From NCBI GenBank assembly GCA_030602565.1, contig JAUVZL010000014.1, positions 1 to 48,867 of the forward strand: DNA of 48,867 nucleotides, read 5' to 3'. Both the position numbers and the translations under genes were made by a program. The notes under the pieces were generated by a model, which was not told where the DNA came from, did no database searches, and saw nothing but the letters and a program-made list of their open reading frames with translations. The stretch comes from Candidatus Stahliibacteriota bacterium (lineage in GTDB: Bacteria > Hydrothermota > Tepidihabitantia > SM23-42). Positions 8,920 through 31,044 of the stretch are shown here, one piece after another (within the stretch, counting starts at the first letter, position 1; each line of letters starts with the position of its first letter).

Positions 8920-8923
8920 ACAT

Positions 8924-9095: not shown

Positions 9096-9111
9096 CTTGT
9101 AGGGGGTCTAA

Positions 9112-10076: not shown

Positions 10077-10078
10077 TG

Positions 10079-10120
10079 ATATTTCAGATTTCAGATTTCA
10101 AATTTCAAATTGAAAAAATC
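10079..10120. repeat. Short AT-rich tandem repeat between mrpB and mrpC
   Basis: Just after the mrpB stop lies a run of TTTCAGA and TTTCAAA units, then an A-rich stretch before the AAGGAG ribosome site of mrpC. No promoter or stable hairpin is evident. Confidence 0.5.
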
Positions 10121-10146
10121 AGAATTTTGGTATTAAGGAGCAGAAT

Positions 10147-10485: not shown

Positions 10486-10540
10486 CAAGAATGGGTAAAC
10501 AAGGGAGAACAAGGGCAAAAAGGGATGAACAGGGGAAAAG
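10484..10540 (+). repeat. Purine-rich left flank of the S23 element
   Basis: A series of GGG-A-rich units runs up to the start of the four-helix-bundle gene. The run GACAAGAATGGGTAAA at its beginning is repeated exactly at the 3' end of mrpG (13579-13594), and related flanks occur at 8924 and 42302. It forms an imperfect inverted pair with the pyrimidine-rich right flank at 10938-10984. Confidence 0.7.
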
Positions 10541-10547
10541 AGGACTA

Positions 10548-10922
10548 ATGGGAAAGGGATATATGAAACTGATTGTGTGGAAAAATGCCTGTGAATTACG
10601 TCGGATAATTTATGAAATTACTAAAAACTTTCCAAAAGAAGAATTACGTAGAATATCTCAAATGCGTGACAGTGCAAGATCAATAAAACAAAATATTCAG
10701 GAAGGTTATAAAAGGACATCAATCGGTATATATATTCAACATCTATCAATTGCCCAGGGTTCTTTAGGGGAACTTTCCGGCGATGTGGATGATTGTTTCG
10801 AAGATAAAATCTTAGACAAACAGGAATATAAAATGATCGATAGTTTAATTGGGCGCACTGATTATCTCTTTATGCGATTAATTCAGTCACTTGATATCAA
10901 AAGAAAAGCGGAGGTAACATAG
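10548..10922 (+). CDS. Four-helix-bundle protein (23S rRNA intervening sequence / S23 family)
   Basis: The 124-residue helical protein has family features: LIVWKNACELRRIIYEIT, MRDSARSIKQNIQEGYKR, and IQHLSIAQGSLGELSGDV. Members form pentameric helical bundles and are related to the Avd accessory protein of diversity-generating retroelements; their general function is unknown. I chose ATG 10548, which follows AGAGGAC; a longer frame from 10482 would translate the flanking repeat. The gene interrupts the mrp cluster, is unrelated to antiporters, and is flanked by inverted repeat-rich arms, so it looks like a small mobile or formerly mobile cassette. No reverse transcriptase or rRNA is nearby. 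Confidence 0.88.
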   Translation: MGKGYMKLIVWKNACELRRIIYEITKNFPKEELRRISQMRDSARSIKQNIQEGYKRTSIGIYIQHLSIAQGSLGELSGDVDDCFEDKILDKQEYKMIDSLIGRTDYLFMRLIQSLDIKRKAEVT

Positions 10923-14931: not shown

Positions 14932-16344
14932 ATGGACAAAGCACGCATCTTAATAGTTGATGATGATAAGGCGATAAGAGAATCTCTGAGCAGGTTGCTG
15001 ACTGACAAGGGCTATGAAGCGTTTGCCGTAGAAGATGGCTACCAAGCGATTGAAATGGTTCGGCAAAAAGAATGGGATCTGGCAATGGTGGATCTAAAAA
15101 TGCCTGGTATTGATGGCTTCGAGGTTCTGAGTAAGCTCTCCCAAATCAGTCCCAGAACCAGTGTAATCGTCATTACTGGATACGCAACAGTTGAAAGCGC
15201 AGTCAAAGCAATTAGACAAGGTGCAGTAGACTATGTTGCCAAACCCTTTACTTTCGAAGAACTGTTAATACGCGTTGAAAAGGCGTTGGAGAGTATGCGC
15301 CTTTTGGCTGAGAACATTTACTTACGCCAGGAATTGAGTGAACGCTACGCATTCAGCAATATTTTAGGTAAGAGCGGGGCTATGCAGGAGATTTTCCGGC
15401 TCATTGAGAAAGTGGCGCCAACTGATTCTACAGTCTTGATTCGTGGCGAAAGCGGGACAGGTAAGGAGCTTATCGCGCGTGCACTCCATTACCATTCCCT
15501 GAGAAAAAAAGAGAAATTCATTACAGTTGATTGCGGTGCGCTTCCTGAAACACTCCTTGAGAGTGAGTTGTTTGGTCATGTGAAAGGTTCTTTTACTGGA
15601 GCAATTGTGACTAAGCGAGGTCTTTTAGAAGTAGCAAATGGGGGGACTTTTTTCCTGGACGAAGTGGGTGACTTGAGTGTCGGTATTCAGTCCAAGTTGC
15701 TGAGAGTACTCCAGGAAAAAGAATTCAGACAAGTAGGTGGTATCAAGAGCATCAAGGTAGATGTCCGTTTGATCGCGGCAACCAACAAAAATATAGAAAA
15801 GATGATTGACAACGGTAGTTTTCGCGAAGATCTCTTCTACAGAATAAATGTCGTCCCGATTCATTTACCTTCGCTTCGAGAAAGAAAAGAAGATATCCCT
15901 TTATTAGTGCACCACTTTTTAGAGGTGTATAACAAGAAAAAAAGCAAGCAGATAAAGGGGGTATCTGCAGAGGCGATGAATCTGCTAATGGATTTTGAAT
16001 GGCCGGGTAATGTTCGGGAATTGGAGCACATCATAGAACGTTTGGTTATCATGAGCGAAGGTGATATTATTGAATCAGAGCAATTACCCATTCAAGTTGT
16101 AGGGAAAAGAGTATGTTTCAATATTACAACGCCAAAGACCAATGAAGAGTTAAAGAAACTAAGGAAGCAGCTGCGGGAAAAGGCGATTGAGAATATTGAA
16201 CATGCATTTGTCATTGACGCGCTTAAGAGAAATGAATGGAATGTAAGTAAAGCAGCACGTGATGTTGGTATGAAGCGGCAGAACCTGCAAGCCATGATGC
16301 GCAAATATAATATCCAGTCAAGTATAAAATCAACCCGAGATTGA
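14932..16344 (+). CDS. Sigma-54-dependent response regulator (NtrC family)
   Basis: The 470-residue protein has an N-terminal receiver (ILIVDDDK; phospho-acceptor Asp in MVDLKMPG near residue 54), a central AAA+ domain and a C-terminal Fis-type helix-turn-helix (SKAARDVGMKRQNLQAMM). The AAA+ part carries Walker A GESGTGKE near residue 172, the sigma-54 contact loop as GSFTGA (canonical GAFTGA) and Walker B GGTFFLDE. The family activates sigma-54 promoters from upstream sites. A -24/-12 promoter and an upstream palindrome lie directly downstream (16488-16641), so the next operon is its probable target. Confidence 0.95.
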   Translation: MDKARILIVDDDKAIRESLSRLLTDKGYEAFAVEDGYQAIEMVRQKEWDLAMVDLKMPGIDGFEVLSKLSQISPRTSVIVITGYATVESAVKAIRQGAVDYVAKPFTFEELLIRVEKALESMRLLAENIYLRQELSERYAFSNILGKSGAMQEIFRLIEKVAPTDSTVLIRGESGTGKELIARALHYHSLRKKEKFITVDCGALPETLLESELFGHVKGSFTGAIVTKRGLLEVANGGTFFLDEVGDLSVGIQSKLLRVLQEKEFRQVGGIKSIKVDVRLIAATNKNIEKMIDNGSFREDLFYRINVVPIHLPSLRERKEDIPLLVHHFLEVYNKKKSKQIKGVSAEAMNLLMDFEWPGNVRELEHIIERLVIMSEGDIIESEQLPIQVVGKRVCFNITTPKTNEELKKLRKQLREKAIENIEHAFVIDALKRNEWNVSKAARDVGMKRQNLQAMMRKYNIQSSIKSTRD

Positions 16345-16400: not shown

Positions 16401-16487
16401 GCAAATGAATGTATTTATTATGCATGCATGACATTTATATTCAAACATAGTTATTCATAACTCTCGAAATACTGATTGTTTGTCTTT

Positions 16488-16518
16488 GCCTTATGCATGT
16501 GAAAACCATGCACAAGGC
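16488..16518. promoter_or_regulatory. Imperfect palindrome, candidate NtrC-type activator site
   Basis: GCCTTATGCATG (16488-16499) and CATGCACAAGGC (16507-16518) form an inverted repeat with one mismatch in 12 pairs and a 7-base spacer. It lies about 110-140 bases upstream of the sigma-54 promoter, the usual place for an enhancer of an NtrC-family activator. A related word, ATGCATGCATG, occurs at 16420-16430. It could instead form an RNA hairpin, but it is not followed by a T-run. Confidence 0.5.
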
Positions 16519-16626
16519 AAAATTGATTTTGGCATGGACATTTAGCGAACACCAGAATACTGAAAAACCCCTTAAATATCAATGGTTTTGACAGAAAATA
16601 CTGCTCCATACGTATGTCATATTAGC

Positions 16627-16641
16627 TGGCATGGATTTTGC
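16627..16641 (+). promoter_or_regulatory. Sigma-54 (-24/-12) promoter
   Basis: TGGCATGGATTTTGC matches the sigma-54 consensus (TGGCAC, N5, TTGC) with the invariant GG and GC exactly ten bases apart. Transcription would start near 16653, just before GGAGA (16655-16659) and ATG 16668. The 323-base gap between 16344 and this start holds only this promoter, the palindrome and the possible terminator. Confidence 0.65.
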
Positions 16642-16667
16642 GTATGAATATATTGGAGAAGCCTTTA

Positions 16668-17936
16668 ATGATTGGACAAAGAAAAGCCAAACGCTACCGA
16701 ATCATTGTTATGGATAGCGATGTGAAAACTGCAAAGCAGTTGGTTTCCGTGTTGTGCAAGGAAGGTTATCGTGCAGAGAATATTGAACAGACAAGTAGGC
16801 TTTTTGAGAAAATTCGTAGCAACTTAATCGATGTTCTAATACTCGATGTTGATGCTTGGTACAAAAGAGGATATGAACTTATTCCGATCGTGAAAAGCAT
16901 GGATAGGCTGTTGCCGATTATCGTGACTTCAGCTGACGATTCCATAGAAGTCGCAGCTAAGGTTAGGGAACAAGGCATTTTTTTCTATACGATGAAGCCC
17001 CTCGACATGCAAGAAATAAAAATAGCATTGAAAAATGCCCTAAATCGCAGGTACACAAGTCGTTATACATCAGGTTCAGGTAAACAAGAAAAACTCGGTG
17101 TGGTAGATACGAGTGAAGTCATCCGCAACAATACAGAGATGTGCGACATAAATAAGCATCTGAATTGGATTATGGCTTTCTTCGTACATGAATGCAAAGG
17201 AACTCTCGGATCGGTCATGATGAATATTAGTGCGCTCGCTGATGCGAATATATCTCAGCGCATTAGTCCTGCAAAACACAATGCAATGCTTTTGAGCTCT
17301 TTGTGTAGTCTGAGAATGTTACACGACATGATAAGAAATTATATTATTTCCTACAGGGGAGAGAACAAAAGGCTACAATGTTCGAGAAGACGCGTTGATG
17401 TGTACAAACGCTGTCTCGAGCCAGTCATTAATGAGTTCCGACCGATGCTTAAGAAGAACGAAATGAGCATAAATGTAGATATGAAAGGTAATCGTTTTTT
17501 CTATTGTGATGCCGATCTAATGAAGATCGGCATCAGTAATTTGATAAACAACGCCATCAAATATGGTACGGCATGTACTGATATAAGATGCAAGTCGTTA
17601 ACAACCGACCAGATCTTCAGACTCAGTATATGGAACGAAGGCATTGGGGTGGAACGAGAAAGGCTGGACGATATCTTTGAGAGGTTTATCAGATTTGATA
17701 AGGTAGGTATAAGCGGTACTGGGCTTGGTCTGCACGTGGTTAAGATGATTGCTAATATCCACAACGGTTCGGTTAAGGCTGAATCAGGATATCTGATTAC
17801 TGATACTTCAGTTACCTATGATGAATTTTATAGTAATCCACGTCTTGCAAAAACTGATAGAACAGACCTCAAGAAATTTGCGAGATTTATTTTTGAAATT
17901 CCCTCTAGTGGACACCAACAAAAAGGGGAGGTGTAA
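16668..17936 (+). CDS. Receiver-histidine kinase hybrid
   Basis: The 422-residue protein has an N-terminal receiver-like domain (phospho-Asp in VLILDVDAW), a divergent dimerisation region with the candidate phospho-His in FFVHECKGTLG near residue 175, and a GHKL ATPase domain (N box SNLINNAIKYG, G1 WNEGIGV, G2 SGTGLGLHVVKM). No membrane segment or sensor domain is seen, so it is a cytosolic relay. ATG 16668 was chosen because the sigma-54 promoter predicts a transcript starting near 16653, which excludes the in-frame starts at 16638 and 16644. It is followed one base later by a receiver protein and then the HdrA-NuoE operon. Confidence 0.87.
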   Translation: MIGQRKAKRYRIIVMDSDVKTAKQLVSVLCKEGYRAENIEQTSRLFEKIRSNLIDVLILDVDAWYKRGYELIPIVKSMDRLLPIIVTSADDSIEVAAKVREQGIFFYTMKPLDMQEIKIALKNALNRRYTSRYTSGSGKQEKLGVVDTSEVIRNNTEMCDINKHLNWIMAFFVHECKGTLGSVMMNISALADANISQRISPAKHNAMLLSSLCSLRMLHDMIRNYIISYRGENKRLQCSRRRVDVYKRCLEPVINEFRPMLKKNEMSINVDMKGNRFFYCDADLMKIGISNLINNAIKYGTACTDIRCKSLTTDQIFRLSIWNEGIGVERERLDDIFERFIRFDKVGISGTGLGLHVVKMIANIHNGSVKAESGYLITDTSVTYDEFYSNPRLAKTDRTDLKKFARFIFEIPSSGHQQKGEV

Positions 17937-17937
17937 A

Positions 17938-18333
17938 ATGACAGAACAAAAAACGATTCTGATTGTTGACGATGACAAGGACTTCCTGGAGGCAACAAGT
18001 ATTGTGCTGGAAAAGAGTGGTTACTCAGTTGCAACCTGTCTGTCAGCCAAGGAGTGCCTCGCTAAGTTGAAGTCTATGAAACCGGATCTAATAATCCTTG
18101 ATGTTATGATGGAAACTGATCATTCGGGGTTTGATTTATGTCGGGAGATGAAGCGATTACCCGAAACCAAGGATGTTCCAATAATCATGTTGACTGCAGT
18201 AGATCAGAAATATTCGCTTAGTTTTTCATCAGCTGCTGGCGATGAATCCTGGTTGCCAGTCGACGAATTTATCGGTAAACCGGTTGAAGCAGGTGTTCTG
18301 GTAGAATGTATTGAGAAACTTCTGGCGCGTTGA
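17938..18333 (+). CDS. Single-domain response regulator
   Basis: The 131-residue protein is a receiver domain only: acidic pocket LIVDDDKD, phospho-Asp in LIILDVMM, and IGKPVE near the C-terminus. Start ATG 17938 follows GGGGAGGTG. It has no output domain, so it may pass phosphoryl groups between the hybrid kinase and another protein or act by protein contact. Its stop overlaps the start of the HdrA-NuoE fusion gene, so it is co-expressed with redox enzymes. Confidence 0.92.
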
Positions 18334-19211
18334 TGAACATGGGACATAACGGACAAAAGGTAGGTGCCGCCCTGGTTATTGGTGGTGGCATTGGTGGTAT
18401 TCAATCGGCATTAGATTTAGCTGATTCCGGGTTCAAGGTTTACCTGTTGGAAAAAGGTCCAAGTATCGGTGGTGTGATGGCACAACTGGACAAAACTTTT
18501 CCGACAAATGATTGTTCGATGTGTATTCTTGCGCCCAAACTTGTGAGTGTTGCTCGTCATCCGAATATTACCATCATTACAAATGCAGAGATCAAAAAGT
18601 TATCCGGTGAAGCTGGCAATTTTGTTGCTACTGTGAGAAAAGAACCACGCTATATTGATGAAGATAAGTGTACTGGTTGTGGACTTTGTATGCAAAATTG
18701 TCCAGTTCGACAGATTGCCTATTTAGACAAAGAGGAAGAGAAAATAGAATTAGACTCCGAGGATCGTATCAAAATTGAGGAGATTCTAAGAGAGTATCAG
18801 ACAAAAAAGGGTAACCTCATGCCTGTTTTGCAAAGAATCAATGCAACGTACAATTACCTACCAGCCGATCTTCTTCGCTATATTGCATCAGAATTGGATA
18901 TACCGCTGAGCCAGGTTTATAATATCGCGACTTTCTATAATGCCTTCAGCCTGGTTCCTAAAGGACGACACACAATCGCCATCTGCCGCGGCACTGCCTG
19001 TCATGTACGTGGTTCATTAAGAATTCAGGAGAGGATTGAACAGAAACTGGGCATTAGTGATGGCGGCACAACCGAGGATTTAAGGTTTACTATTCAGACT
19101 GTAAGATGCATCGGCTGTTGCAGCATTGCGCCCGCAGTACGAGTCGATGAAGATACCTATGGTAACGTTAAGACAAATCAAGTATTCGATATATTAAGGA
19201 AGTACAAATGA
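18333..19211 (+). CDS. Fusion of the HdrA N-terminal part with a NuoE-type [2Fe-2S] subunit
   Basis: Residues 1-125 of this 292-residue protein are the start of an HdrA: FAD-binding VIGGGIGG, the conserved [11 protein letters not shown], and the [4Fe-4S] motif [12 protein letters not shown]. From about residue 145 it is a complete NuoE/HndA-type thioredoxin-fold protein ([32 protein letters not shown]) with four [2Fe-2S] cysteines. The HdrA part stops abruptly after the Fe-S motif. The matching remainder begins in the protein at 21139, also right after an Fe-S motif. The closest relative of the HdrA part is the N-terminus of 43891-48411. The FAD site would have to be completed by another polypeptide. 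ATG 18333 overlaps the previous stop. Confidence 0.88.
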
Positions 19212-21142
19212 AGGAAATACAGACATCGAAACTATTGGATGATATAAAAAAGGCAGGTCTAGCTACTCTCTATCCAGAAGATAGAATTAGAATAACAGTG
19301 GGTATGGCGACCTGTGGTCTTGCAACAGGTGCCGATGTAGCTTATAAGTACCTTTGTGAAAAAGTAAAAAATTCTGATTACCGCATTTCAGTAGTGCCGG
19401 TAGGATGTATAGGTTTTTGTCAAAGAGAACCACTGGTCGAGATTTTAATACCAAAATTGCCCAGGATTGCATTTGCCAATGTGAATAAAGATAAAATCAA
19501 GAAAATATTTGAAAATTTAAGCGAAAATAGGATTAGTAGCATTTCTGCTGATTGGCGGTACGATGAGGACGATTTTATAATATTCAATAAGAAAAGAGAA
19601 TTATGTAATGGAGCCCTGCCTGATGAAATTAAGTCGGTCAAGCTTTATAATGAGATACCATTTTTTAAAAAACAACTAAAGATTGCTTTAAGGAATTGTG
19701 GCTATATCAATCCTGAAGATATTGGAGAATATATTGCAAGAGGTGGTTATTATTCACTTTGTAAAGCTCTTACAGAAATGTCACCTAAAGAAGTGATAAA
19801 GGAAATAAAAAAGTCAAGTTTAAGAGGTCGTGGTGGTGCAGGATTTCCAACGGGTACGAAATGGGAGATCTGCCGAAATGTCAAAGGTGACGTCAAATAT
19901 CTTATCTGTAATGCTGATGAAGGTGATCCTGGTGCATATATGGACCGAAGCATCTTAGAAGGTGATCCCCATTCGGTGATTGAAGGTTTCCTCATCGGCG
20001 CCTATGCCATCGGAGCAACTGAGGGGCATATTTATGTAAGGACTGAGTACCCGTTAGCAATTGAGAGATTTAATAAGGCAATTAAAAAAGCCGAAGAACA
20101 TGGACTTCTAGGTGAAAACATCTTTGGAAAAGGCTTTAATTTCAAAATTAACGTCAGTGAAGGTGCGGGCGCCTTTGTTTGTGGTGAAGAAACATCACTT
20201 ATTGCCTCAATTGAAGGGCGACCACCTGAGCCGACATTGAGGCCACCATTTCCAGCAGAATCAGGTCTCTGGGGAAAGCCTACGAATATAAATAACGTTG
20301 AAACCTGGGCGAATATTCCAGTGATAATTGCTCGGGGTGGGGATTGGTTTGCAAAGATTGGTACGGAAAAGAGTAAGGGGACAAAAGTTTTCTCCTTGGT
20401 GGGTAAAATTGAGAATACTGGATTGATTGAAGTCCCGATGGGGATAAAGCTTGAGGAGATTTTAGAGATTGGTGGTGGTATACCTGAAGGGGGCACATTC
20501 AAGGCAATTCAGACCGGTGGTCCTTCAGGCGGTTGTATTCCTCAGAAACTGATTAACCTACCGGTTGACTATGAGAAACTTGCTGAGGCTGGTTCGATCA
20601 TGGGTTCAGGAGGGATGATTGTTATGGACGAGCGAACCTGTATGGTTGATATTGCGAAATACTTTCTTGAATTTTTAAAGGACGAATCTTGTGGTAAATG
20701 TACATCTTGTCGTGATGGGCTTCATGAGATGTATGAGATTGTTAAACGTATTACCGAGGGTAGGGGGATAGATGGTGATATCGAGTTACTCGAAAATTTA
20801 GGTAATGTGGTGCAGGTGGCATCAATGTGTGGACTTGGTCAGACTGCTGCCAATCCTGTGCTTTCGACGATAAAATATTTTCGAGAAGAATATGAGGCAC
20901 ACATCAAAGAGAAGTGTTGTCCTGCATTGGTTTGCAAAGAGTTAATTTCTTATGTCATTAATCCCGAATTGTGCAGCGGCTGTACTGTATGTGCCAAAAA
21001 CTGTCCAAATGAAGCGATAACCGGTGAGGCAAAAGAGATTCATAAAATTAATCAGAAAAAGTGTACAAAGTGTGGAATCTGCATTTCTGTCTGTCCACCA
21101 AAGTTTAAGGCAATAAAAATTGTTTCACCGGCTGTAACATGA
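19208..21142 (+). CDS. NuoF-type NADH-oxidising flavoprotein with extra ferredoxin domain (HndC/HydB-like)
   Basis: The 644-residue protein has a thioredoxin-like [2Fe-2S] N-terminus ([16 protein letters not shown]) and an NADH/FMN-binding core from about residue 205 ([27 protein letters not shown]). It continues with the SLBB region and the [4Fe-4S] motif [10 protein letters not shown] with the distant Cys in SMCGLGQ. It ends in a two-cluster ferredoxin ([24 protein letters not shown]). This is the layout of NADH-binding subunits of bifurcating hydrogenases and related enzymes. It should pass electrons between NADH and the NuoE and NuoG-like partners. It overlaps both neighbours by four bases. 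Confidence 0.93.
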
Positions 21143-24100
21143 GTAAACATAAAAAACAATTACAGACAAGAAAGAGGAAAATGAAGAAAAAACCGGTAAA
21201 GAAAAAGGTTGGTAAAAAGATAAAGAAGAAAACAAAGAATATGGTGTCATTAACTATTGACGGTAATTATGTAACAATAGAAAAAGGTAGAACAATTCTT
21301 GAGGCTGCACATGAGCTCAATATTGAAATTCCCACATTATGTTATCATGAGGCATTGAGTCCTTATGGTGCCTGTCGACTATGTGTGGTAGAGATTCATA
21401 AAAATGGTAGAAAGAAGATCCAGGCATCATGTCTCTATCCAGTTGAGGATGGCATAGAGGTGATAACGAACACACCAGAGTTACAAAATATCCGAAGAAC
21501 AATGATTGAACTTATTATGGCACGCGCACCTCACTCAGAAAAAGTGAAAGAAATAGCCCGAAAGCTCGGTGTTAAAGAGACAAGATTTATTCGCAGAGAC
21601 GAAGATTGTATCTTGTGCGGTTTATGTGTCAGGATGTGTCGGGAGCGAATGGGCAAAAGCGTAGTTGGTTTTAAGATGAGGGGTGATAAGCGGCAAATAT
21701 CACCACCTTTTGATGTTGAGTCGCCACAGTGCATAGTATGTGGAGCCTGTTATTCAATATGTCCTACAGCATCAGAACGTCTCAAAAAGATAAGTAAAAA
21801 AATTGCGAGGCCGCTTTTAGATGAATTTGACCAGGGACTCCGGTCAAGATCAGCAATTCGTATACCATTTCCTCAGGCAATACCCAATGTGGCAGTTGTT
21901 GATAAAGAACACTGTGTCCATTTTCTAACCGATGAATGTAAGATCTGTCAGGATCTCTGTGAAGCAAAGGCAATAAATTTTGACCAGAAAGAAGAAGTAA
22001 TCGATTTACAGGTTGGTTCAGTTATACTTTCATGTGGCTTTGAGGTCTACGATGGCAAAAAGAAGCGTGAGTATGGTAATGGACGATATGAAAATGTTGT
22101 GACATCAATTGAATTTGAAAGAATTCTGTCTGCATCCGGGCCCTTTCAAGGCCATATCCAAAGACTCAGCGATAAAAAAGAACCAAAAAAGATTGCCTTT
22201 ATTCAGTGTGTTGGAAGCAGGGATGAAGAAAACCCGTATTGCTCATCAGTATGTTGTATGTATGCGACAAAAGAAGCAGTTATTGCTAAGGAGCACTCAC
22301 CCGGGCTTGAGTGCACTATATTTTTTATGGATATCCGGGCATTTGGTAAGGGTTTTGATGAATACTATGAGAGGGCAAAGAGAAATGGGGTTAGGTATAT
22401 CAGGTGCCGCCCTTCATCAATTGATGAGGTGCCGGAATCGAAAAATTTAATTATTAAATACTCTAATGATGAAAATGGAAAAATACATGCTGAAGAACAT
22501 GATATGGTGGTTTTATCATGTGGTTTAGAGCCGTTGAGACAGATGCCTGCGCTCGCGCAAAGGTTGGATATTAAATTGAATGAATTTGGTTTCTGTCAAA
22601 CAGACACCTTTACCCCCGTTGAGTCGAGCAGAAAAGGGATATATGTATGTGGGCCATGTACTGAGCCAAAAGATATACCAGAAACAGTAACCCAATCATC
22701 TGCAGCTGCGGCTAAAACAATGGAACTATTGGCTGAAAAGAGAAATACCTTAGTTACAAAAAAAGAATACCCATCTGAATTGGATGTCGCAAATCAAGAA
22801 CCACGCATTGGCGCCTTTATCTGTCATTGTGGAATCAACATCGGTGGATATGTCGATGTGCCGCAGGTTGTTGAGTATACCAAAACCCTTCCTTATGTTA
22901 TATATGCAGAAGATAACCTATATACTTGTTCCCAGGACAGTCAAAGGCGCATTATCGAGATGGTTAAAAAGCATAAATTGAATCGTGTTGTTGTTGCCTC
23001 ATGTACACCAAGGACTCATGAATTACTTTTCAGGGAGACAATAAGAGAGGCGGGTCTAAACCCCTATCTTTTTGAGATGGCAAATATTCGTGACCAGTGC
23101 AGTTGGATACATATGATCGAACCGAAGGAGGCGACTGAAAAGGCAAAGGATTTGGTCTTGATGGCAGTGGCAAAAGCGCAATTACTTACACCTTTAAAAC
23201 GGGTTGAGATCGATGTAATTCAAAAGGCACTGGTAATTGGTGGTGGAATTGCCGGCATAGTCTCAAGCCTTTCTCTTGCCCGACAGGGTTTTGAGGTTTT
23301 TCTTGTAGAGAAAGAAAAAGAACTCGGTGGTAATTTGAGGCATATCTACTATACAATCGAGGGAGATGATGTCAAAATTTTCTTAAAAAGAATAATTAAA
23401 CAAGTGAGAAACAATAAGTTGATACATGTATTTACCAATGCGGAGATTGAATCGGTTTCTGGATTCATTGGAAATTACAAGACTGAAATTCTCATTGCAG
23501 ATGGCACAAAGGCAGAACTTAAACACGGAGTAGTAATTGTCGCTACTGGTGCCCAGGAATATCAACCTACTGAATATCTATATGGAAAAGAAAAAAGAGT
23601 AATCACCCAAAAAGAGTTGGAAGGGAAACTATCCAGCCAACCATCTGACATCAGTCATCTGTCATCTGTAGTAATGATTCAGTGCATTGGTTCCAGGGAT
23701 AATGGTCATCCATATTGTAGTAGAAGATGTTGTTCTCAGGCTATTAAGAATTCATTAAAATTACTTGAGCTAAACCCAAAGGCAAAAATATATGTTCTTT
23801 ATCGTGATATCCGTACGTATGGCTTCAAAGAAGATTTCTATACTAAGGCAAGAGAAACTGGGGTGATGTTTATACAGTATGATAATGAAAAGAGACCTTT
23901 GTTACAACACAACAACGGTTCCTTAGAAATTTCAGTATTTGAACCGGTGTTGCAAGAAAACATTGAAATTCATCCTGACCTTATAGTCCTTTCAACCGGT
24001 ATTGTGCCAGGTGATAATATAGAGACTGCCAAGATGTTGAAGGTGCCTTTAAATAGTGATGGCTATTTCCTCGAGGCCCATGTGAAGTTACGGCCAGTTG

Positions 24101-24471
24101 ATTTCGCCACCGAAGGAATATTTGTTGCGGGGCTTGCACACAGTCCCAAGTTTATAAATGAAACAGTTGGTCAGGCTGAAGCTGCTGCAGCACGAGCTGC
24201 GACAATTTTGGCAAATGAAAAATATTATGCAGAAGCAACGGTCTCTCATGTAAATGAAGATATCTGTGTTGGCTGTGGTGTCTGTAGTAGTTTATGTCCA
24301 TACGAAGCGATCGAAATTATCACCGAAGATGGAAAACGGATATCTAAGGTAAATGAGGCATTGTGTAAGGGTTGTGGTACTTGTGTTGCGGCGTGCCCTT
24401 CAGGGGCAATGGATCAGTATGGGTTTACAAAAAACCAGATCATGGCAATGGTTGAAGCAATAAAGGAGTGA
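21139..24471 (+). CDS. NuoG-like Fe-S domain fused to tandem HdrA lacking its first FAD segment
   Basis: The 1110-residue protein starts with a Lys-rich tail, then a [2Fe-2S] domain at about residues 65-105 (PTLCYHE, CRLCVVEI, ASC) and two [4Fe-4S] motifs (CILCGLCVRMC, CIVCGACYSICP), as in NuoG/HydA N-termini. After the last motif the sequence becomes HdrA (IPFPQAIPNVAVVDKEHC, GSVILSCGF, IAFIQCVGSRD) but without the HdrA N-terminal Rossmann part. A second HdrA follows: the Cys-rich FICHCGIN domain, VIGGGIAG, and two C-terminal [4Fe-4S] motifs (CVGCGVCSSLCP, CKGCGTCVAACP). No H-cluster motifs are present, so it is not an [FeFe]-hydrogenase. It is very similar to the second half of 43891-48411. 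Confidence 0.88.
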   Translation: MSKHKKQLQTRKRKMKKKPVKKKVGKKIKKKTKNMVSLTIDGNYVTIEKGRTILEAAHELNIEIPTLCYHEALSPYGACRLCVVEIHKNGRKKIQASCLYPVEDGIEVITNTPELQNIRRTMIELIMARAPHSEKVKEIARKLGVKETRFIRRDEDCILCGLCVRMCRERMGKSVVGFKMRGDKRQISPPFDVESPQCIVCGACYSICPTASERLKKISKKIARPLLDEFDQGLRSRSAIRIPFPQAIPNVAVVDKEHCVHFLTDECKICQDLCEAKAINFDQKEEVIDLQVGSVILSCGFEVYDGKKKREYGNGRYENVVTSIEFERILSASGPFQGHIQRLSDKKEPKKIAFIQCVGSRDEENPYCSSVCCMYATKEAVIAKEHSPGLECTIFFMDIRAFGKGFDEYYERAKRNGVRYIRCRPSSIDEVPESKNLIIKYSNDENGKIHAEEHDMVVLSCGLEPLRQMPALAQRLDIKLNEFGFCQTDTFTPVESSRKGIYVCGPCTEPKDIPETVTQSSAAAAKTMELLAEKRNTLVTKKEYPSELDVANQEPRIGAFICHCGINIGGYVDVPQVVEYTKTLPYVIYAEDNLYTCSQDSQRRIIEMVKKHKLNRVVVASCTPRTHELLFRETIREAGLNPYLFEMANIRDQCSWIHMIEPKEATEKAKDLVLMAVAKAQLLTPLKRVEIDVIQKALVIGGGIAGIVSSLSLARQGFEVFLVEKEKELGGNLRHIYYTIEGDDVKIFLKRIIKQVRNNKLIHVFTNAEIESVSGFIGNYKTEILIADGTKAELKHGVVIVATGAQEYQPTEYLYGKEKRVITQKELEGKLSSQPSDISHLSSVVMIQCIGSRDNGHPYCSRRCCSQAIKNSLKLLELNPKAKIYVLYRDIRTYGFKEDFYTKARETGVMFIQYDNEKRPLLQHNNGSLEISVFEPVLQENIEIHPDLIVLSTGIVPGDNIETAKMLKVPLNSDGYFLEAHVKLRPVDFATEGIFVAGLAHSPKFINETVGQAEAAAARAATILANEKYYAEATVSHVNEDICVGCGVCSSLCPYEAIEIITEDGKRISKVNEALCKGCGTCVAACPSGAMDQYGFTKNQIMAMVEAIKE

Positions 24472-24473
24472 TT

Positions 24474-24890
24474 ATGGATAATTTTAAGCCAAGGATAATT
24501 ATTTTCTGCTGCAACTGGTGCTCTTATGCCGGTGCCGACCTGGCAGGTGTATCGCGGCTACAAATAGCTCCTCATTTCAGAGTAATCAGGACAATGTGTT
24601 CAGGCAGAATTGAACCAGAGTTTGTCCTAAAGGCATTCCAAAATGGGGTTGATGGCGTGATGATCACTGGTTGTCATCCAGGCGATTGTCACTATATAAG
24701 TGGCAATTATAAAACAATAAGAAGATATTACTTCCTTAAATTATTATTGAGTGAATTTGGTGTCAATACAAAAAGATTAAAATTACATTTTATCTCGGCT
24801 GGTGAAGGTATAGAATTCCAGAAGAGAGTTAATGAATTTATTGAAGAAATAAAGAAACTAGGATCGGCAGACTACGCACAAAAGGAGTAA
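24474..24890 (+). CDS. mvhD: MvhD/FlpD-type [2Fe-2S] electron-transfer subunit
   Basis: The 138-residue protein has the MvhD pattern: CCNWCSYAGADLAG, TMCSGRIEP and TGCHPGDCHYISGN. MvhD passes electrons between a hydrogenase or NAD(P)H module and HdrA. ATG 24474 has AAAGGAG five bases upstream; a GTG at 24468 lies in that site. Placed between the NuoEFG-HdrA genes and hdrC, it likely joins them. Confidence 0.93.
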   Translation: MDNFKPRIIIFCCNWCSYAGADLAGVSRLQIAPHFRVIRTMCSGRIEPEFVLKAFQNGVDGVMITGCHPGDCHYISGNYKTIRRYYFLKLLLSEFGVNTKRLKLHFISAGEGIEFQKRVNEFIEEIKKLGSADYAQKE

Positions 24891-24894
24891 AACC

Positions 24895-25344
24895 ATGGAG
24901 ACAAAAGAAGGTAAGATTAATATTAACGAAATGGATTTCAAATTCGCTGAAGAAGTGATATCGTATCCAGGGGGTGAGCATTTAAGGAAGTGTTTTGCCT
25001 GCGGTACGTGTACTGCTGGATGTCCAATTAGTGAGATCGATGAAGCCTTCAGTCCGCGCAGAATTATTCGTCAGATCCTATTCGGCATGCGTGAAGAGGT
25101 ATTAAGCTCGCCGGCCATCTGGTTTTGTCTTATCTGTTATCGTTGCTATGCACACTGTCCACAGAACGTCAATTTCCCGGATCTCATGCGTGTTTTACAG
25201 TATCTCGCAATTAAACAAAACTATGTAACATCTGATATCCTTGATCGTATTAAAGAAATCGATAAACGACTGCAGATACTAAGGCATGATCTCATAAAAT
25301 ATGATGTTGATAAGCAAAAACAACTACACCCAGTCAAAAAATGA
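24895..25344 (+). CDS. hdrC: Heterodisulfide reductase subunit C
   Basis: The 149-residue protein has two [4Fe-4S] motifs, CFACGTCTAGCP and CLICYRCYAHCP, with the family text EAFSPRRIIRQILFGM between them and a helical C-terminus. HdrC relays electrons from HdrA to the disulfide-reducing HdrB. No hdrB follows here, which is unusual; the only hdrB in the window is at 43013. This HdrC may share that HdrB or serve another acceptor. Confidence 0.93.
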   Translation: METKEGKININEMDFKFAEEVISYPGGEHLRKCFACGTCTAGCPISEIDEAFSPRRIIRQILFGMREEVLSSPAIWFCLICYRCYAHCPQNVNFPDLMRVLQYLAIKQNYVTSDILDRIKEIDKRLQILRHDLIKYDVDKQKQLHPVKK

Positions 25345-25383
25345 TGGAAATATTTTATATGTTAAAAAAGATAAAGAGCAAAT

Positions 25384-28300
25384 ATGAAAGAAATGAATAG
25401 CCATAAGAAAGTGATGGTTATAGGCGGTGGTATTGCCGGAGTCCAGGCCGCTTTGGATTTGGCCGATTCTGGTGTTGAGGTCTATCTTATTGAGAGGTCA
25501 CCGAGCATTGGCGGCAGAATGGCACAACTTGACAAGACCTTTCCAACAAATGACTGTTCATTGTGTATCCTTTCTCCGAAACTTGTTGAGGCAGGTAATC
25601 ATCCTTGTATCAACATCATCACTAATGCTACGGTCGAAAAAGTTAAAGGAGACGCACCACACTTCAAAGTAAAGATAAAGAAAGAACCCCGTTATGTGGA
25701 TGAGGCGAAGTGCACAGGCTGCGGCATCTGTATGGCAAAATGTCCGGTCAAAATACCCGATACATATAACATGGGATTATGTGATACAAAGTGTATCCAT
25801 ATTCCTTTTCCTCAAGCAGTTCCGGCAGTTGCACTAATAGATAAAGACCACTGTATTTATTTTAGACGAGGTAAATGCCGTATCTGCGAAAAATTCTGCG
25901 AGCCAAAGGCAATAGACTTCAATCAGAAGGAAAAATATATTGATCTTGAGGTCGGTAGTATCATTCTTGCTGTAGGTCTTACTGAATTTGATGCTGTACT
26001 GAAAGACGAATATGGCTACAAAATCTATCCAAATGTTGTAACAAGCATGGAATTTGAACGCATCTTGAGTGCCTCAGGACCAACTCAGGGGCATGTGTTA
26101 AGACCATCTGATGCTAAAGAACCGAAAAGAATCGCATTTATTCAATGTGTAGGTTCACGGGATACACAAATCGGCAATGAGTATTGCTCAGCTTTCTGCT
26201 GTATGCAGGCTGCTAAGGATGCAATAATTATCACGGAACATCTATCCGACGTTGAAATTTCAGTTTTTGGTATGGATATCCGGGCATATGGAAAAGATTT
26301 TGACAAATTTATTGAGCGAGCCGAAAATGAGCATAATACACGCTTTGTCCGTGTCCGCGTTTCGTCAGTTGATGTTGATCCTGTGAATGATAATCCCATA
26401 GTGCACTATGAAGAAGATGGTCATGTTAGAAAAGAAGCATTTGATCTATTAATACTTTCGGTTGGCTTAAGGTCGACTCCACAACTGCGGCGTCTCAGCG
26501 CAAAGCTTGGTATTAAACTCGATGAGTCTGGATTTGTCCATACTACTCCATTCGCCCCAATAAGTACATCGCGTCCAGGCATATTTGTATGTGGTACTTT
26601 TTCGGGTCCGAAAGATATTCCTGAATCAGTCATTGAAGCAAGCGGTGCAGCGGGTTCGGCAGGTGTGATATTGAGCGGATTTCCGAACAAGGAAATTGTA
26701 GTAGAATATCCGTCAGAGATACCAATCAACGATGGTGATCGTCCGAAAGTCGGTGTTTTTGTATGTCATTGTGGAATAAACATCGCAGCAACAGTTAATG
26801 TTAAACAGGTTGTAGAGTATATCGCCACTCTCCCATATGTAGTTCACAGCCAGGCAATGCTGTTCGCATGTTCGCAGGATGCACAAAAGCTGATAACTGA
26901 GAAGATCCATGAACTTGGGCTCAATCGTGTTGTCGTTGCAGCTTGTACACCACGGACCCATGAACCGCTGTTTCAGGAGACCCTTAAAAAATCAGGGCTT
27001 AATCCCTATCTTTTTGAATTTGCCAATATTCGTGATCAGTGTTCGTGGGTTCATCAAAAGGAGCCTGAAAAAGCGACTGAAAAAGCAAAAGACCTTGTTA
27101 AGATGGCGGTTTTTAAGGTAATAAACCTTGAACCGTTGAGTAAGATGAGGTTGAGTATTAACAAAAATAGTCTTGTAATCGGTGGTGGTTTAGCAGGTGT
27201 GACCGCAGCCCTGGGCCTTGCAGAGCAGGGGTATCATGTCGACCTCGTTGAAAAGGAGAGCGAGCTTGGTGGTAATCTGAGACACATTCCTTATACGCTT
27301 GAAGGAGAAAAGACCGGACCTTTCCTCAAGTCTCTTATTGAAAGGGTCAATGCGCATCCTCTGATTGCCGTCAATTGCGGGGCAGAAATTGAGGAAATAA
27401 ATGGGTTTATTGGAGATTATAAAACGACGATAAAATTTAATACAAATAGCCAGAAATATCAATATTCAGAATTGGGTATGATAGAGCCTAAAGAACGAAA
27501 ACAGATTGAACATGGTATTATCATCGTTGCCACTGGTGCTCAGGAGTATCAGCCCACTGAATATTTTTACGGCGAGGACAAAAAGGTAATTACACAACGT
27601 GAGTTGGAAAAGATACTTGCACAAGTGAACCCACTCCGCCAAGCGGGGCCGAGGAAGTTAAAAGTGGCAAACGGAAAACAAAGTGATAATCTGATAGCGG
27701 ACATCGATCATCTGTCATCTGTAGTAATGATCCAGTGTGTTGGTTCAAGAGATGACAAAAATCAATACTGTAGCAGGGTGTGTTGCAGTACTGCAGTAAA
27801 AAATGCTTTGATGTTAAAACAGCTTGCTCCGCGTGTAAAGGTATTTATTCTTTATCGCGATGTTAGAACGTATGGAATGAAAGAACTTTATTATAAAAAG
27901 GCGCGTGAATCGGGGGTGATTTTTATACAGTATGACAAAGACGAAAAACCCGAGGTGATAAGAAATGAAAATTCCTTATGTGTTGAGGTGAAAGAAAAAA
28001 TAATGAATAAAACGTTACAATTTACACCTGATTTACTTGTTCTGAGCACTGGTATCATTCCTAACAGCGATAATAAGTTTTTATCACAAACCTTAAAAGT
28101 GCCGTTGGGTACTGATGGATTCTTTCTCGAGGCGCACGTTAAGTTGAGACCAGTAGATTTTGCCACTGATGGTGTTTTTGTCTGCGGTCTTGCTCATTAC
28201 CCAAAAGATATTAGCGAAACTATTGCACAGGCAAAGGCGGCAGCCTCGAGGGCACTCACCGTGTTAAGTAAAGATGAAATTGAGGCTGAGGGTAAAGTTG

Positions 28301-28515
28301 CATATATTAATGAAACGCGATGTAGCGGCTGTGGATTATGTGTTGACATCTGTGCATACAGAGCGATAGAGCTCGACCCTGAAAAGAATATTGCGGTGGT
28401 GAATGAAGCACTATGTAAAGGCTGTGGGACTTGTGCCGCTTCCTGCAGATCATCGGCAATAAATCTTAAAGGTTTTAAAGATGAACAAATCTTAGCAACA
28501 TTAGCTGCAATATAA
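25384..28515 (+). CDS. hdrA: Tandem HdrA-like flavoprotein, uninterrupted form
   Basis: The 1043-residue protein is two HdrA units in one chain. Unit one has the FAD segment VIGGGIAG (about residue 12), NDCSLCILSPKL, CTGCGICMAKCP (about 110-120), a third Cys group CRICEKFCEPKAIDF and IAFIQCVGSRD. Unit two begins near residue 455 with the Cys-rich domain FVCHCGIN, then VIGGGLAG near 595, IQCVGSRD, and ends with two [4Fe-4S] motifs (CSGCGLCVDIC, CKGCGTCAASC). HdrA is the flavin bifurcation centre of heterodisulfide reductases; single HdrA is about 650 residues. A low-complexity insert with a GC-rich core lies before VVMIQCVGSRD of unit two. It is followed by FlxDCBA, a probable NADH module. Confidence 0.92.
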   Translation: MKEMNSHKKVMVIGGGIAGVQAALDLADSGVEVYLIERSPSIGGRMAQLDKTFPTNDCSLCILSPKLVEAGNHPCINIITNATVEKVKGDAPHFKVKIKKEPRYVDEAKCTGCGICMAKCPVKIPDTYNMGLCDTKCIHIPFPQAVPAVALIDKDHCIYFRRGKCRICEKFCEPKAIDFNQKEKYIDLEVGSIILAVGLTEFDAVLKDEYGYKIYPNVVTSMEFERILSASGPTQGHVLRPSDAKEPKRIAFIQCVGSRDTQIGNEYCSAFCCMQAAKDAIIITEHLSDVEISVFGMDIRAYGKDFDKFIERAENEHNTRFVRVRVSSVDVDPVNDNPIVHYEEDGHVRKEAFDLLILSVGLRSTPQLRRLSAKLGIKLDESGFVHTTPFAPISTSRPGIFVCGTFSGPKDIPESVIEASGAAGSAGVILSGFPNKEIVVEYPSEIPINDGDRPKVGVFVCHCGINIAATVNVKQVVEYIATLPYVVHSQAMLFACSQDAQKLITEKIHELGLNRVVVAACTPRTHEPLFQETLKKSGLNPYLFEFANIRDQCSWVHQKEPEKATEKAKDLVKMAVFKVINLEPLSKMRLSINKNSLVIGGGLAGVTAALGLAEQGYHVDLVEKESELGGNLRHIPYTLEGEKTGPFLKSLIERVNAHPLIAVNCGAEIEEINGFIGDYKTTIKFNTNSQKYQYSELGMIEPKERKQIEHGIIIVATGAQEYQPTEYFYGEDKKVITQRELEKILAQVNPLRQAGPRKLKVANGKQSDNLIADIDHLSSVVMIQCVGSRDDKNQYCSRVCCSTAVKNALMLKQLAPRVKVFILYRDVRTYGMKELYYKKARESGVIFIQYDKDEKPEVIRNENSLCVEVKEKIMNKTLQFTPDLLVLSTGIIPNSDNKFLSQTLKVPLGTDGFFLEAHVKLRPVDFATDGVFVCGLAHYPKDISETIAQAKAAASRALTVLSKDEIEAEGKVAYINETRCSGCGLCVDICAYRAIELDPEKNIAVVNEALCKGCGTCAASCRSSAINLKGFKDEQILATLAAI

Positions 28516-28526
28516 GGAGATAATCT

Positions 28527-29009
28527 ATGAAACAATCGGACAATAAGACGATCAGACGATCAGACGATAAGACTAATTATGAACCTAAAATAGTGGCTTT
28601 CTTGTGCAATTGGTGTTCTTATGCTGGAGCAGATCTTGCTGGAGTAAGTAGATTTCAGTATCCGCCCAATATCAGAGTTATCAGGGTACCCTGTTCAGGA
28701 CGTATTAACCCGTTATATATAATTAAGGCATTACAAAGTGGTGTAGATGGAGTTTTGGTTTCTGGATGTCATCCTGGTGACTGTCACTATATAAGCGGAA
28801 ACCTTTTTGCCCGTAGGAAATTTGCCTTGATGAAAAAATTCTTGGATTATTTGGGTATTGAGCCAGAGAGGGTACAGTTTTCATGGGTTTCGGCTGCAGA
28901 AGGCGCACGATTTGCCGAGATAATTAAGAAAGTAACGAATGATATAAAAAAACTTGGTCCACTTACATATTTTCGTAAGGACTTTGAGAAAACAGGAAAG
29001 GTATTATGA
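28527..29009 (+). CDS. flxD: MvhD-like subunit (FlxD)
   Basis: The 160-residue protein has the MvhD signature (LCNWCSYAGADLAGVSRF, VPCSGRINP, SGCHPGDCHYISGN). Compared with the copy at 24474 it carries about 14 extra N-terminal residues encoded by a GACGATCA/GATAAGAC repeat, so the extension probably arose from repeat DNA. The partner genes downstream form the FlxCBA set. The ATG has AAGGAGAT upstream and the stop overlaps the next start. Confidence 0.9.
   Translation: MKQSDNKTIRRSDDKTNYEPKIVAFLCNWCSYAGADLAGVSRFQYPPNIRVIRVPCSGRINPLYIIKALQSGVDGVLVSGCHPGDCHYISGNLFARRKFALMKKFLDYLGIEPERVQFSWVSAAEGARFAEIIKKVTNDIKKLGPLTYFRKDFEKTGKVL
28534..28573 (+). repeat. GACGATCA/GATAAGAC repeat within the flxD start
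   Basis: Three near-repeats of a CGGACAATAAGACGATCA-type unit encode the N-terminal tail of the MvhD protein. A related repeat lies inside the HdrA gene at 47511-47601. Confidence 0.6.
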
Positions 29010-29989
29010 GGCAGATAGAATATGAGATAATCAATACTGTTGAAAAACTTTTTGCCGATAAGAAAATTGATATCTTCATAGGTTATAAAAAAGGTACTCT
29101 TTCTTTGCAGACTTCACCATATTTTTTATCTGAACAAGATGATGTTCGTAAACTTGTCTGGAATAGTTTCTGTTCAAATAATCTCGCGGTGTTCATACCG
29201 CGTATTATACCAAATAGTAAAAGTAAGGAATCCAAGCCAGTCGGAATTCTTTGTAAGGGGTGTGATAGCCGTTCGCTTGTTGGTCTTATTAAAGAAAAAC
29301 AGATAAATAGAGATAATCTCTTTATTATCGGTATATCCTGCCCAGGTATTGTTGATAGAAGAAAAATATTATCTCGATTAGATGGCAAAGAGATTATAGG
29401 TATTGATGAAGATGCCGATAGTATTGTAGTTAAACTTAAAGATGGTGAGAAGAGATTCGAAAAGGAGGAGTACCTCTGTGAATCTTGCCTCAACTGCGCT
29501 CATCCAACACCGAGCATATATGATGTATTGATACGTGGAGCAGTATATTCTCTTCAAGCCATTACACCCGACCCAATAACAAAGGATTTTAGCTCAAAAC
29601 CACGTGAAGAGAGATGGAAAATATTTGAGACTGAGGTTTCAAAGTGTATTCGATGTTACGCGTGCCGAGATGCATGTCCAAATTGTTACTGCAAAGAGTG
29701 TTTTGCAGAACAGACAAAGCCGCAATGGCTTGGGGTATCAAAGGGCCTTTCTGAAGTCATCTTTTATCACATTGTTAGAATATTACACCAAGCAGGAAGG
29801 TGTGTCGATTGTGGGGCATGTGTTCGCGCCTGTCCAATGGATATAAACCTCAGACTCTTTACGCGCGTTATGGTTGATGAGGTGAAGGAGCGTTTTGGTT
29901 ATGAACCTGGTATATCTCTTAAAGATACACCACCACTTGCGACATTCTCAGCTGATGATAAACAGGAATTTATGACTGAGCCGGAGTGA
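29006..29989 (+). CDS. flxC: Iron-sulfur subunit with FdhB/FrhB-like N-terminus (FlxC)
   Basis: The 327-residue protein has an N-terminal region with CKGCDSRSLVGLI and YLCESCLNCAHP, then two ferredoxin motifs: CIRCYACRDACPNCYCKEC (about residues 214-232) and CVDCGACVRACPMDI (about 271-285). This resembles FdhB/FrhB-like iron-sulfur subunits found with HdrA and Flx proteins. It starts at ATGA overlapping flxD and precedes flxB and flxA, matching the flxABCD set in reverse order. The exact flx letter rests on context. Confidence 0.82.
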   Translation: MRQIEYEIINTVEKLFADKKIDIFIGYKKGTLSLQTSPYFLSEQDDVRKLVWNSFCSNNLAVFIPRIIPNSKSKESKPVGILCKGCDSRSLVGLIKEKQINRDNLFIIGISCPGIVDRRKILSRLDGKEIIGIDEDADSIVVKLKDGEKRFEKEEYLCESCLNCAHPTPSIYDVLIRGAVYSLQAITPDPITKDFSSKPREERWKIFETEVSKCIRCYACRDACPNCYCKECFAEQTKPQWLGVSKGLSEVIFYHIVRILHQAGRCVDCGACVRACPMDINLRLFTRVMVDEVKERFGYEPGISLKDTPPLATFSADDKQEFMTEPE

Positions 29990-30000
29990 AGAGGAGAATA

Positions 30001-31044
30001 ATGCTAAAAGAAAAAAGGAATCTAATGCTTTATAAGCAAGATTTCGAAAAATTCTTTAGATTATTGTCAGAAACATTTACAATTTTTGGCCCGTCAAAAA
30101 CAGATGGCAGTCGTAGTTTTACCAAAATCGATGCATCCGATGAAATTGCTTTTGACTATGAGAATACTAAAATGTCTCTAAAGGAGTTTTTCTTTCCCCA
30201 GACAGAGACGCTTTTCTTCTTTGATACCGAAAAGAATGAAGTAAAACAAACAGATGTCGAAACGAATAAACATGATAAACAAAATATTTTATTTGGTGTG
30301 CGGCCATGCGATGCAATGTCAATTTCTTTTTTAGATAAGGTATTTAATGCAAATAACCCACAAGACCTCTACTATACAAGAAGAAGAAAATCAACAAGAA
30401 TAGTTTCATTTGCATGCACTAATCCCGCTTCAACCTGTTTCTGTACTTCAGTGGGGTGTGGGCCAGATTCTGAGACTGGCGCTGATATTATTTTCTTCGA
30501 ACTGAATGGTCGCTATTTCATAAAGACGGTGACGCCGGAGGGCGAAAAGACTATAAAAAGTGCGGAAAAATTATTGAATCCTGCTACCAAAAATGATATC
30601 GAAGAGAAAGTACATTTGATGAAGACTGCGAATAGTAATCTTAAAAAGATATTTGATAGTGGAAATCTACAAAAGAAACTCGATAATTTCAATGCACCGT
30701 ATTGGGGAAAATTGCACCGAAAATGCCTTGGCTGTGGTATCTGTACTTATCTCTGTCCAACCTGTCACTGTTTTGATATTACAGATGAAGTTATTAAATC
30801 TAACGGAAGACGAATAAGGACATGGGACTCTTGTATGTTTTCACTCTTTACACTCCATGCATCAGGACACAACCCTCGACCTACCCAGAAGGAGAGGATG
30901 AGACAGCGTATTATGCACAAGTTCAATTATGCACCAAAATACTATGGTAAGACATTTTGTGTTGGTTGCGGAAGATGTGTTATATACTGCCCGGTCAACA
31001 TGGACATTCGCGATGTGATGAAAGAAATCATGGAGGAAAGATGA
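30001..31044 (+). CDS. flxB: AsrA/HydB-like iron-sulfur subunit (FlxB)
   Basis: The 347-residue protein belongs to the sulfhydrogenase-beta/anaerobic sulfite reductase A family: FGVRPCDAMSISFLDKVF, CTNPASTCFCTSVGCGP, then two cluster motifs CLGCGICTYLCPTCHC and CVGCGRCVIYCPVNMDI. It moves electrons between the FAD/NAD subunit and its partners. ATG 30001 follows GAGGAG; an in-frame GTG at 29986 is less likely. The stop overlaps the start of flxA (ATGA). Confidence 0.9.
   Translation: MLKEKRNLMLYKQDFEKFFRLLSETFTIFGPSKTDGSRSFTKIDASDEIAFDYENTKMSLKEFFFPQTETLFFFDTEKNEVKQTDVETNKHDKQNILFGVRPCDAMSISFLDKVFNANNPQDLYYTRRRKSTRIVSFACTNPASTCFCTSVGCGPDSETGADIIFFELNGRYFIKTVTPEGEKTIKSAEKLLNPATKNDIEEKVHLMKTANSNLKKIFDSGNLQKKLDNFNAPYWGKLHRKCLGCGICTYLCPTCHCFDITDEVIKSNGRRIRTWDSCMFSLFTLHASGHNPRPTQKERMRQRIMHKFNYAPKYYGKTFCVGCGRCVIYCPVNMDIRDVMKEIMEER

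What the first reader, a model, noticed from the sequence alone, without database searches (positions are those of the whole stretch)
16488..16641. Sigma-54 promoter and enhancer-like palindrome before the HdrA-NuoE operon
A -24/-12 match with exact GG/GC spacing lies 109 bases downstream of a 12-bp palindrome, right after a gene for an NtrC-type activator. This predicts phospho-relay control of the regulator genes and probably of the whole split-HdrA operon.
Basis: partly seen in the sequence, partly recalled or inferred. Interest (0 to 1): 0.6.

Follow-up and report, generated by a model that had tools for sequence, protein, structure and literature searches.

The report
Sigma-54 promoter with activator sites
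A bacterial on-switch lies directly in front of a large electron-transfer (Hdr) operon; comparing nine related genomes shows that the switch and the landing sites of its dedicated activator protein are conserved together, so it is very probably real, though of a familiar kind.

Summary
At 16627-16641 lies a perfect -24/-12 core (TGGCATGGATTTTGC). It is one of only 11 exact matches in a 2.7-Mb genome that has rpoN. The palindrome is the window's only inverted repeat with 15-nt arms (at most one mismatch, loop up to 12). Nine genomes of one WOR-3/Stahlbacteria family carry the same NtrC-type activator (61% identity or more). All nine have a -24/-12 site and TGCATA-type dyads between activator and kinase, the proximal dyad 114-129 bp upstream of -24. 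A composite dyad-plus-promoter pattern matches 7 of 147 genomes of the phylum, only activator carriers, with no control matches. Two genomes with the kinase but no adjacent activator lack the sites. Elsewhere the dyad falls almost only in coding DNA without a promoter, so this looks like a dedicated, single-target activator of the kinase-regulator-HdrA/NuoEFG operon. The phosphorelay step is unproven: the kinase has lost its sensor region here and its catalytic residues in two relatives. New member of a known kind; nearest precedent: DVU2394 of Desulfovibrio.

The parts
14932..16344 (+). NtrC-type response regulator (REC - AAA+ sigma-54 interaction domain - Fis-type HTH), the proposed enhancer-binding activator; GSFTGA loop
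   Evidence: Pfam hits PF00072, PF00158, PF02954; orthologues at 61-80% identity in 8 related genomes; REC Asp/Thr/Lys and HTH conserved in 9 of 9
16406..16424 (.). distal activator dyad 1a, TGAATG-TATTTAT-TATGCA
   Evidence: one mismatch to TGCATR-N7-YATGCA; equivalent adjoining dyads at about 209-212 bp in G002, G020, G021
16425..16443 (.). distal activator dyad 1b, TGCATG-ACATTTA-TATTCA
   Evidence: one mismatch; centre 194 bp upstream of -24, matching distal dyads at 190-201 bp in relatives
   Evidence: arm extensions absent in relatives
16494..16512 (.). proximal activator dyad, TGCATG-TGAAAAC-CATGCA
   Evidence: conserved with its position (114-129 bp upstream of -24) in relatives
16627..16641 (+). 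sigma-54 -24/-12 promoter core TGGCATGGATTTTGC; predicted start of transcription near 16652-16653
   Evidence: exact match; site present in all 9 orthologous intergenic regions
16668..17936 (+). REC - histidine kinase (DHp-like FFVHECKGTLG - HATPase), first gene of the controlled operon; ribosome-binding site GGAG at 16655-16658
17938..18333 (+). single-domain response regulator
18333..19211 (+). HdrA N-terminal part fused to NuoE
   Evidence: Pfam 2Fe-2S_thioredx plus FAD/Fer4 motifs; stop/start overlap with the preceding gene
19208..21142 (+). NuoF-like subunit
21139..24471 (+). NuoG N-terminal part fused to HdrA
24468..31988 (+). rest of the tightly packed redox operon: MvhD/FlpD (24468-24890), HdrC-like (24895-25344), HdrA (25384-28515), MvhD-like (28527-29009), 4Fe-4S proteins (29006-29989, 29986-31044), FAD/NAD oxidoreductase (ending 31988)
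   Evidence: membership of one transcript inferred from gene packing only

Best explanation
The 323-bp gap between the activator gene and the kinase gene is a sigma-54 (RpoN) promoter region. The activator encoded immediately upstream, a response regulator of the NtrC type, binds as dimers or oligomers to two or three TGCATA-N7-TATGCA dyads about 125 and 190-215 bp upstream of the -24 element. DNA looping brings its AAA+ domain to RNA polymerase-sigma54 at 16627-16641 and ATP hydrolysis opens the promoter. Transcription starts near 16652-16653 and runs through kinase, receiver protein and the HdrA-NuoE/NuoF/NuoG-HdrA/MvhD/HdrC genes, so the redox complex and its own signalling proteins are made together. 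The activator is dedicated to this one promoter. Shown by computation: the sites, their conserved geometry, co-occurrence with the activator, presence of RpoN. Inferred: which protein binds, the start of transcription, operon length, activation by phosphorylation, and the kinase that does it.
For: Exact promoter core, 1 of 11 in the genome. rpoN with an RpoN box, SRRTISKYRD. A -24/-12 site in all 9 orthologous gaps. N7 dyads with 11 or more of 12 matches: 11 observed, none at most other spacings (5 at N11 and 2 at N13), shuffle mean 0.04 and maximum 1 in 300. Proximal dyad at 114-129 bp and distal at 190-201 bp in relatives. Composite pattern in 7 of 147 genomes of the phylum, all activator carriers, controls 0. 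Activator orthologues (61% identity or more) only in the nine genomes, the next matches being 52% paralogues. G095 and G051 have the kinase but no activator beside it, and no dyad-plus-promoter. REC Asp, Thr and Lys and the HTH region VG(M/L)xRQN conserved in 9 of 9.
Against: No experiment was possible. G006, G017 and G021 have weaker -24 elements (8 or 9 of 11 positions), and the second half of the proximal dyad is degenerate in G020 and G021. G004 has an imperfect distal dyad. GSFTGA differs from canonical GAFTGA, and G006 has GSFTDA, although such variants are listed among the activators of D. vulgaris (PMC4641369).
Confidence: 0.92

Rival explanations
1. The palindrome is an RNA stem-loop (terminator or 3'-end stabiliser of the activator mRNA), not a protein-binding site.
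For: In the window the stem-loop is stable: -23.8 kcal/mol, z -4.3.
Against: No T-tract and no terminator call at this place. The equivalent sites in relatives fold weakly or not at all: z from -2.3 to +1.5, four of the eight positive. Conservation is of the TGCATA halves and N7 spacing, not of stem extension, and two or three copies occur per promoter.
Confidence: 0.04
2. The dyads are bound by another protein, for example the HTH_17 domain inside the longer kinases, and the activator uses other sites.
For: Kinase orthologues outside this genus carry an HTH_17 domain of a DNA-binding type.
Against: This genome and G002 lack that domain but keep the dyads. G095 and G051 keep long kinases but lack the dyads. 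Dyads track the activator gene.
Confidence: 0.05
3. The operon is transcribed mainly by read-through from the activator gene or from a sigma-70 promoter, and the sigma-54 site is minor.
For: Same strand, 323-bp gap, no terminator found on the + strand after the activator gene; sigma-70-like matches occur.
Against: The sigma-70-like matches are poor (9 of 12), and one of the two on the + strand overlaps the -24/-12 core itself. The -24/-12 site and dyads are conserved although most of the gap has diverged.
Confidence: 0.1
4. The control is as described, but the kinase made by the operon is not the activating kinase of the activator; it acts as a phosphatase or antagonist (feedback), and another kinase supplies the phosphate. 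This is a variant of the best explanation, not an alternative to it.
For: The kinase is in the target operon. It has lost its PAS and HTH_17 parts in this genus. In G020 and G021 the H-box His is Arg (FFARES) and the N- and G-boxes are degraded, while the activator keeps its phospho-residues.
Against: The window kinase keeps H, N, G1 and G2 motifs, and adjacency usually implies a cognate pair.
Confidence: 0.3

Closest known systems
DVU2394 and the DVU2405-2397 alcohol dehydrogenase/heterodisulfide reductase operon of Desulfovibrio vulgaris (PMC3333781, PMC4641369)
   Same: Two-component sigma-54 activator, also with GSFTGA, that controls an Hdr energy-metabolism operon
   Different: DVU2394's validated site is a direct repeat and it has further targets; here the site is an inverted repeat TGCATA-N7-TATGCA, the activator has one recognisable target, the operon begins with kinase and receiver genes and encodes HdrA-NuoE and NuoG-HdrA fusions. 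Orthology of the two activators was not tested.
NtrC-family enhancer-binding response regulators in general
   Same: REC-AAA+-HTH_8 order, paired dyads 100-200 bp upstream of a -24/-12 promoter (from general knowledge of the family)
   Different: Own site specificity; GSFTGA loop
Flx-Hdr (FlxABCD-HdrABC) NADH dehydrogenase/heterodisulfide reductase
   Same: HdrA/HdrC/MvhD with an NADH-oxidising module, presumably flavin-based electron bifurcation (from general knowledge)
   Different: Here the NADH module is NuoE/F/G-like and fused to HdrA parts

Membership tests
sigma-54 (RpoN) promoter | GG and GC dinucleotides with exact spacing in a TGGCAYG-N4-TTGC context | tested here: met
   16627-16641, 11 of 11
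sigma-54 (RpoN) promoter | RpoN encoded in the genome | tested here: met
   PF04552 E 2.7e-48, RpoN box SRRTISKYRD
sigma-54 (RpoN) promoter | conserved before the same gene in relatives | tested here: met
   9 of 9 orthologous gaps
sigma-54 (RpoN) promoter | transcript starts about 12 nt after the -12 C and needs RpoN | not testable with these tools
   no transcript data
NtrC-type enhancer-binding response regulator | REC + sigma-54 interaction AAA+ + Fis-type HTH | tested here: met
   PF00072, PF00158, PF02954
NtrC-type enhancer-binding response regulator | GAFTGA loop | tested here: inconclusive
   GSFTGA in 8 of 9, GSFTDA in G006; GSFTGA and GAFTDA-type variants are listed for D. vulgaris activators (PMC4641369)
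NtrC-type enhancer-binding response regulator | phospho-acceptor Asp, Thr and Lys in REC | tested here: met
   9 of 9
NtrC-type enhancer-binding response regulator | upstream dyad sites that the protein binds | tested here: inconclusive
   dyads present and co-occurring with the gene; binding itself not testable
DVU2394-type regulator of Hdr operons | direct-repeat binding site | tested here: not met
   conserved sites are inverted repeats; DVU2394 site is a direct repeat (PMC3333781)

The most novel reading that the evidence does not exclude
A dedicated sigma-54 activator is conserved around an Hdr/NADH complex while its operon-borne kinase is decaying: sensor lost in one genus, catalysis lost in two species of another. 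The kinase may then have become a feedback modulator or scaffold, and the activating signal would come from elsewhere.
Probability: 0.3. Interest if true: 0.5.

Novelty: new member of a known kind. Interest (0 to 1): 0.38.

Why it matters
It gives an uncultured phylum (WOR-3/Stahlbacteria) a concrete, comparative-genomics-backed regulatory circuit: a named activator, its binding motif, its promoter and a single target, the presumed electron-bifurcating Hdr/NADH complex. Control of an Hdr operon by a sigma-54 activator was documented in Desulfovibrio; here a regulator with a different kind of site appears to do a similar job in a distant phylum. The circuit can be tested in a heterologous host.

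Tried and rejected
RNA stem-loop/terminator reading of the palindrome: clearly stable in the window only. The palindrome as a regulon-wide box: the 35-nt palindrome is unique in the genome with up to 3 mismatches. Dyads elsewhere: those inspected in this genome and its relatives lie in ORFs apart from one exact copy (L204) without an ORF, and none has a -24/-12 site at the right place. A second -24-like element at 16530 (TGGCATGGACATTTA): no GC at -12 and absent in relatives. HTH_17 of the kinase as binder: contradicted by its loss in two genomes that keep the dyads. In one search the end of the G004 activator was misplaced; correct it. A literature search for enhancer-binding proteins with heterodisulfide reductase found nothing more.

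Full report
Observation. The promoter core TGGCATGGATTTTGC (16627-16641, + strand) matches every specified position of TGGCAYGNNNNTTGC. It is one of 11 exact matches in the 2.74-Mb genome; with one mismatch allowed there are 126 matches against 32 for the reversed pattern, so the genome is enriched for such sites. Of the 11 exact sites 9 lie outside ORFs, against 2 of 19 one-mismatch sites, so an exact match here is a good predictor of a promoter. The genome encodes RpoN with a recognisable RpoN box, SRRTISKYRD. The palindrome has 15-nt arms (16485-16499, 16507-16521) with one mismatch and a 7-nt loop. It is the only repeat of that quality in the window and nearly absent from shuffles.

Phylogenetic footprint. 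The kinase gene downstream and the activator gene upstream were traced through 199 and 293 related genomes. Activator orthologues at 61-80% identity occur in eight other genomes of the same family; the next matches, at 52%, are paralogues. In all nine genomes the order is activator - gap - kinase - receiver - HdrA. Some contigs correspond by length to named records: G002 to JAUWGT010000038 and G009 to DAOVBK010000030 (both Stahlbacteria), and G020 probably to CP070686 (WOR-3 bin65). In every gap a -24/-12 site lies just before the kinase start (8-11 of 11 positions). In every gap there are also TGCATA-type half-sites arranged as dyads with a 7-bp spacer: TGCATA-N7-TATGCA. A spacing scan gives 11 dyads with at least 11 of 12 matches at N7; smaller counts appear at N11 (5) and N13 (2) and none at other spacings from 0 to 19. 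Perfect dyads (12 of 12) occur at N7 only, eight of them. Shuffled gaps give a mean of 0.04 and at most 1 at the 11-of-12 level. The proximal dyad sits 114-129 bp upstream of the -24 GG (123-125 in six genomes) and the distal dyad 190-201 bp, in several genomes with an adjoining further copy. The outer parts of the palindrome arms are not conserved.

Specificity. A composite pattern (dyad, 95-125 bp, -24/-12) was sought in 147 genomes of the phylum. It matches seven, once each, always at this locus and always in activator carriers; the reversed control matches none. The pattern was written from the nine known gaps, so its hits there are expected; the informative part is its absence from the other 138 genomes. 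The remaining two carriers (G020, G021) have the sites in degenerate form. Exact dyads elsewhere in 20 genomes are few (0-2 per genome). Those inspected fall in ORFs with one exception (L204) and have no -24/-12 site at the right place. The kinase occurs without an adjacent activator in G095 and G051, packed behind HdrC, and there neither dyads nor promoter are seen. The activator is therefore best read as a dedicated, single-target regulator, and the sites follow its gene.

Mechanism. The activator is a REC-AAA+-Fis-HTH protein with GSFTGA in place of GAFTGA. Its phospho-acceptor Asp, switch Thr and Lys are conserved in all nine, as is the HTH region VGxxRQN(L/F)Q. With RpoN, paired upstream dyads and a -24/-12 site this is the standard enhancer-binding arrangement (established knowledge of the NtrC family). 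The predicted start is 16652-16653, 15-16 nt before the kinase ATG at 16668, which has GGAG at 16655-16658. From there the genes to 31988 follow with overlaps or gaps of at most about 40 nt, so one transcript covering the HdrA-NuoE, NuoF, NuoG-HdrA, MvhD, HdrC and HdrA genes is likely but inferred.

The phospho-relay. Adjacency suggests that the kinase acts on the activator, but three facts make this less certain. Orthologous kinases of other genera read REC - HTH_17 - PAS - DHp - ATPase (domains scanned in the G005 protein, the others by alignment), while this genome and G002 have lost the HTH_17 and PAS parts. In G020 and G021 the catalytic His is Arg and the N- and G-boxes are degraded. The REC domain of the kinase lacks the acceptor Asp in six of nine. 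The activating kinase is therefore open.

Rivals. An RNA stem-loop explains the window's palindrome but not the relatives, and no terminator is called there. Binding by the kinase's HTH_17 is contradicted by its absence here. Read-through from the activator gene cannot be excluded as an addition.

Comparison. The closest documented case is DVU2394 of Desulfovibrio vulgaris, a two-component sigma-54 activator with the same GSFTGA loop that controls DVU2405-2397, alcohol dehydrogenase and heterodisulfide reductase (PMC3333781, PMC4641369). Its binding site is a direct repeat and it has other targets, so the present circuit is alike in kind but not shown to be the same regulator. A paper on WOR-3 metabolism reports Hdr-Mvh complexes but, in a term search, no regulation of them (PMC12542636).

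Verdict. The finding is real, well supported by comparison and correctly interpreted in the main. It is a new member of a well-known class of control systems.

Noticed in passing
16641-16668 and the equivalent places in G002, G004, G005, G006, G017, G020, G021 (L142-L150): In seven relatives the kinase start codon lies only 14-18 nt after the -12 C, so the predicted sigma-54 transcript would have a 5' leader of about 3-7 nt (nearly leaderless); the window has about 15 nt with a ribosome-binding site.
   Followed up: partly
16668-17936; L142-L150: Kinase orthologues have an HTH_17 DNA-binding-type domain and a PAS domain with conserved cysteines (CYRVSHRS..PCDE..CP) between REC and the catalytic part; both are lost in this genome and G002. 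G020 and G021 look like pseudokinases.
   Followed up: partly
L003 (genome contig C28, about 8751-10296): A second activator-promoter pair in the same genome: an NtrC-type activator (GAFTGA) followed by an exact -24/-12 site and a 358-aa Cys-rich protein whose C-terminal part looks like GcvH by eye.
   Followed up: partly
18333-19211; L033-L049: The HdrA(N-terminal)-NuoE fusion is found in widely separated phyla (Stahlbacteria, Desulfobacteraceae, Thermoplasmatota, Spirochaetales, Fermentibacteraceae) at 48-65% identity.
   Followed up: no
10482-10922: An ORF resembling four-helix-bundle (S23-type) proteins lies inside the antiporter-like operon between subunit genes; recognised by eye only.
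   Followed up: no
16530-16538 and 16627-16635: TGGCATGGA occurs twice; the upstream copy has no -12 GC and is not conserved.
   Followed up: yes
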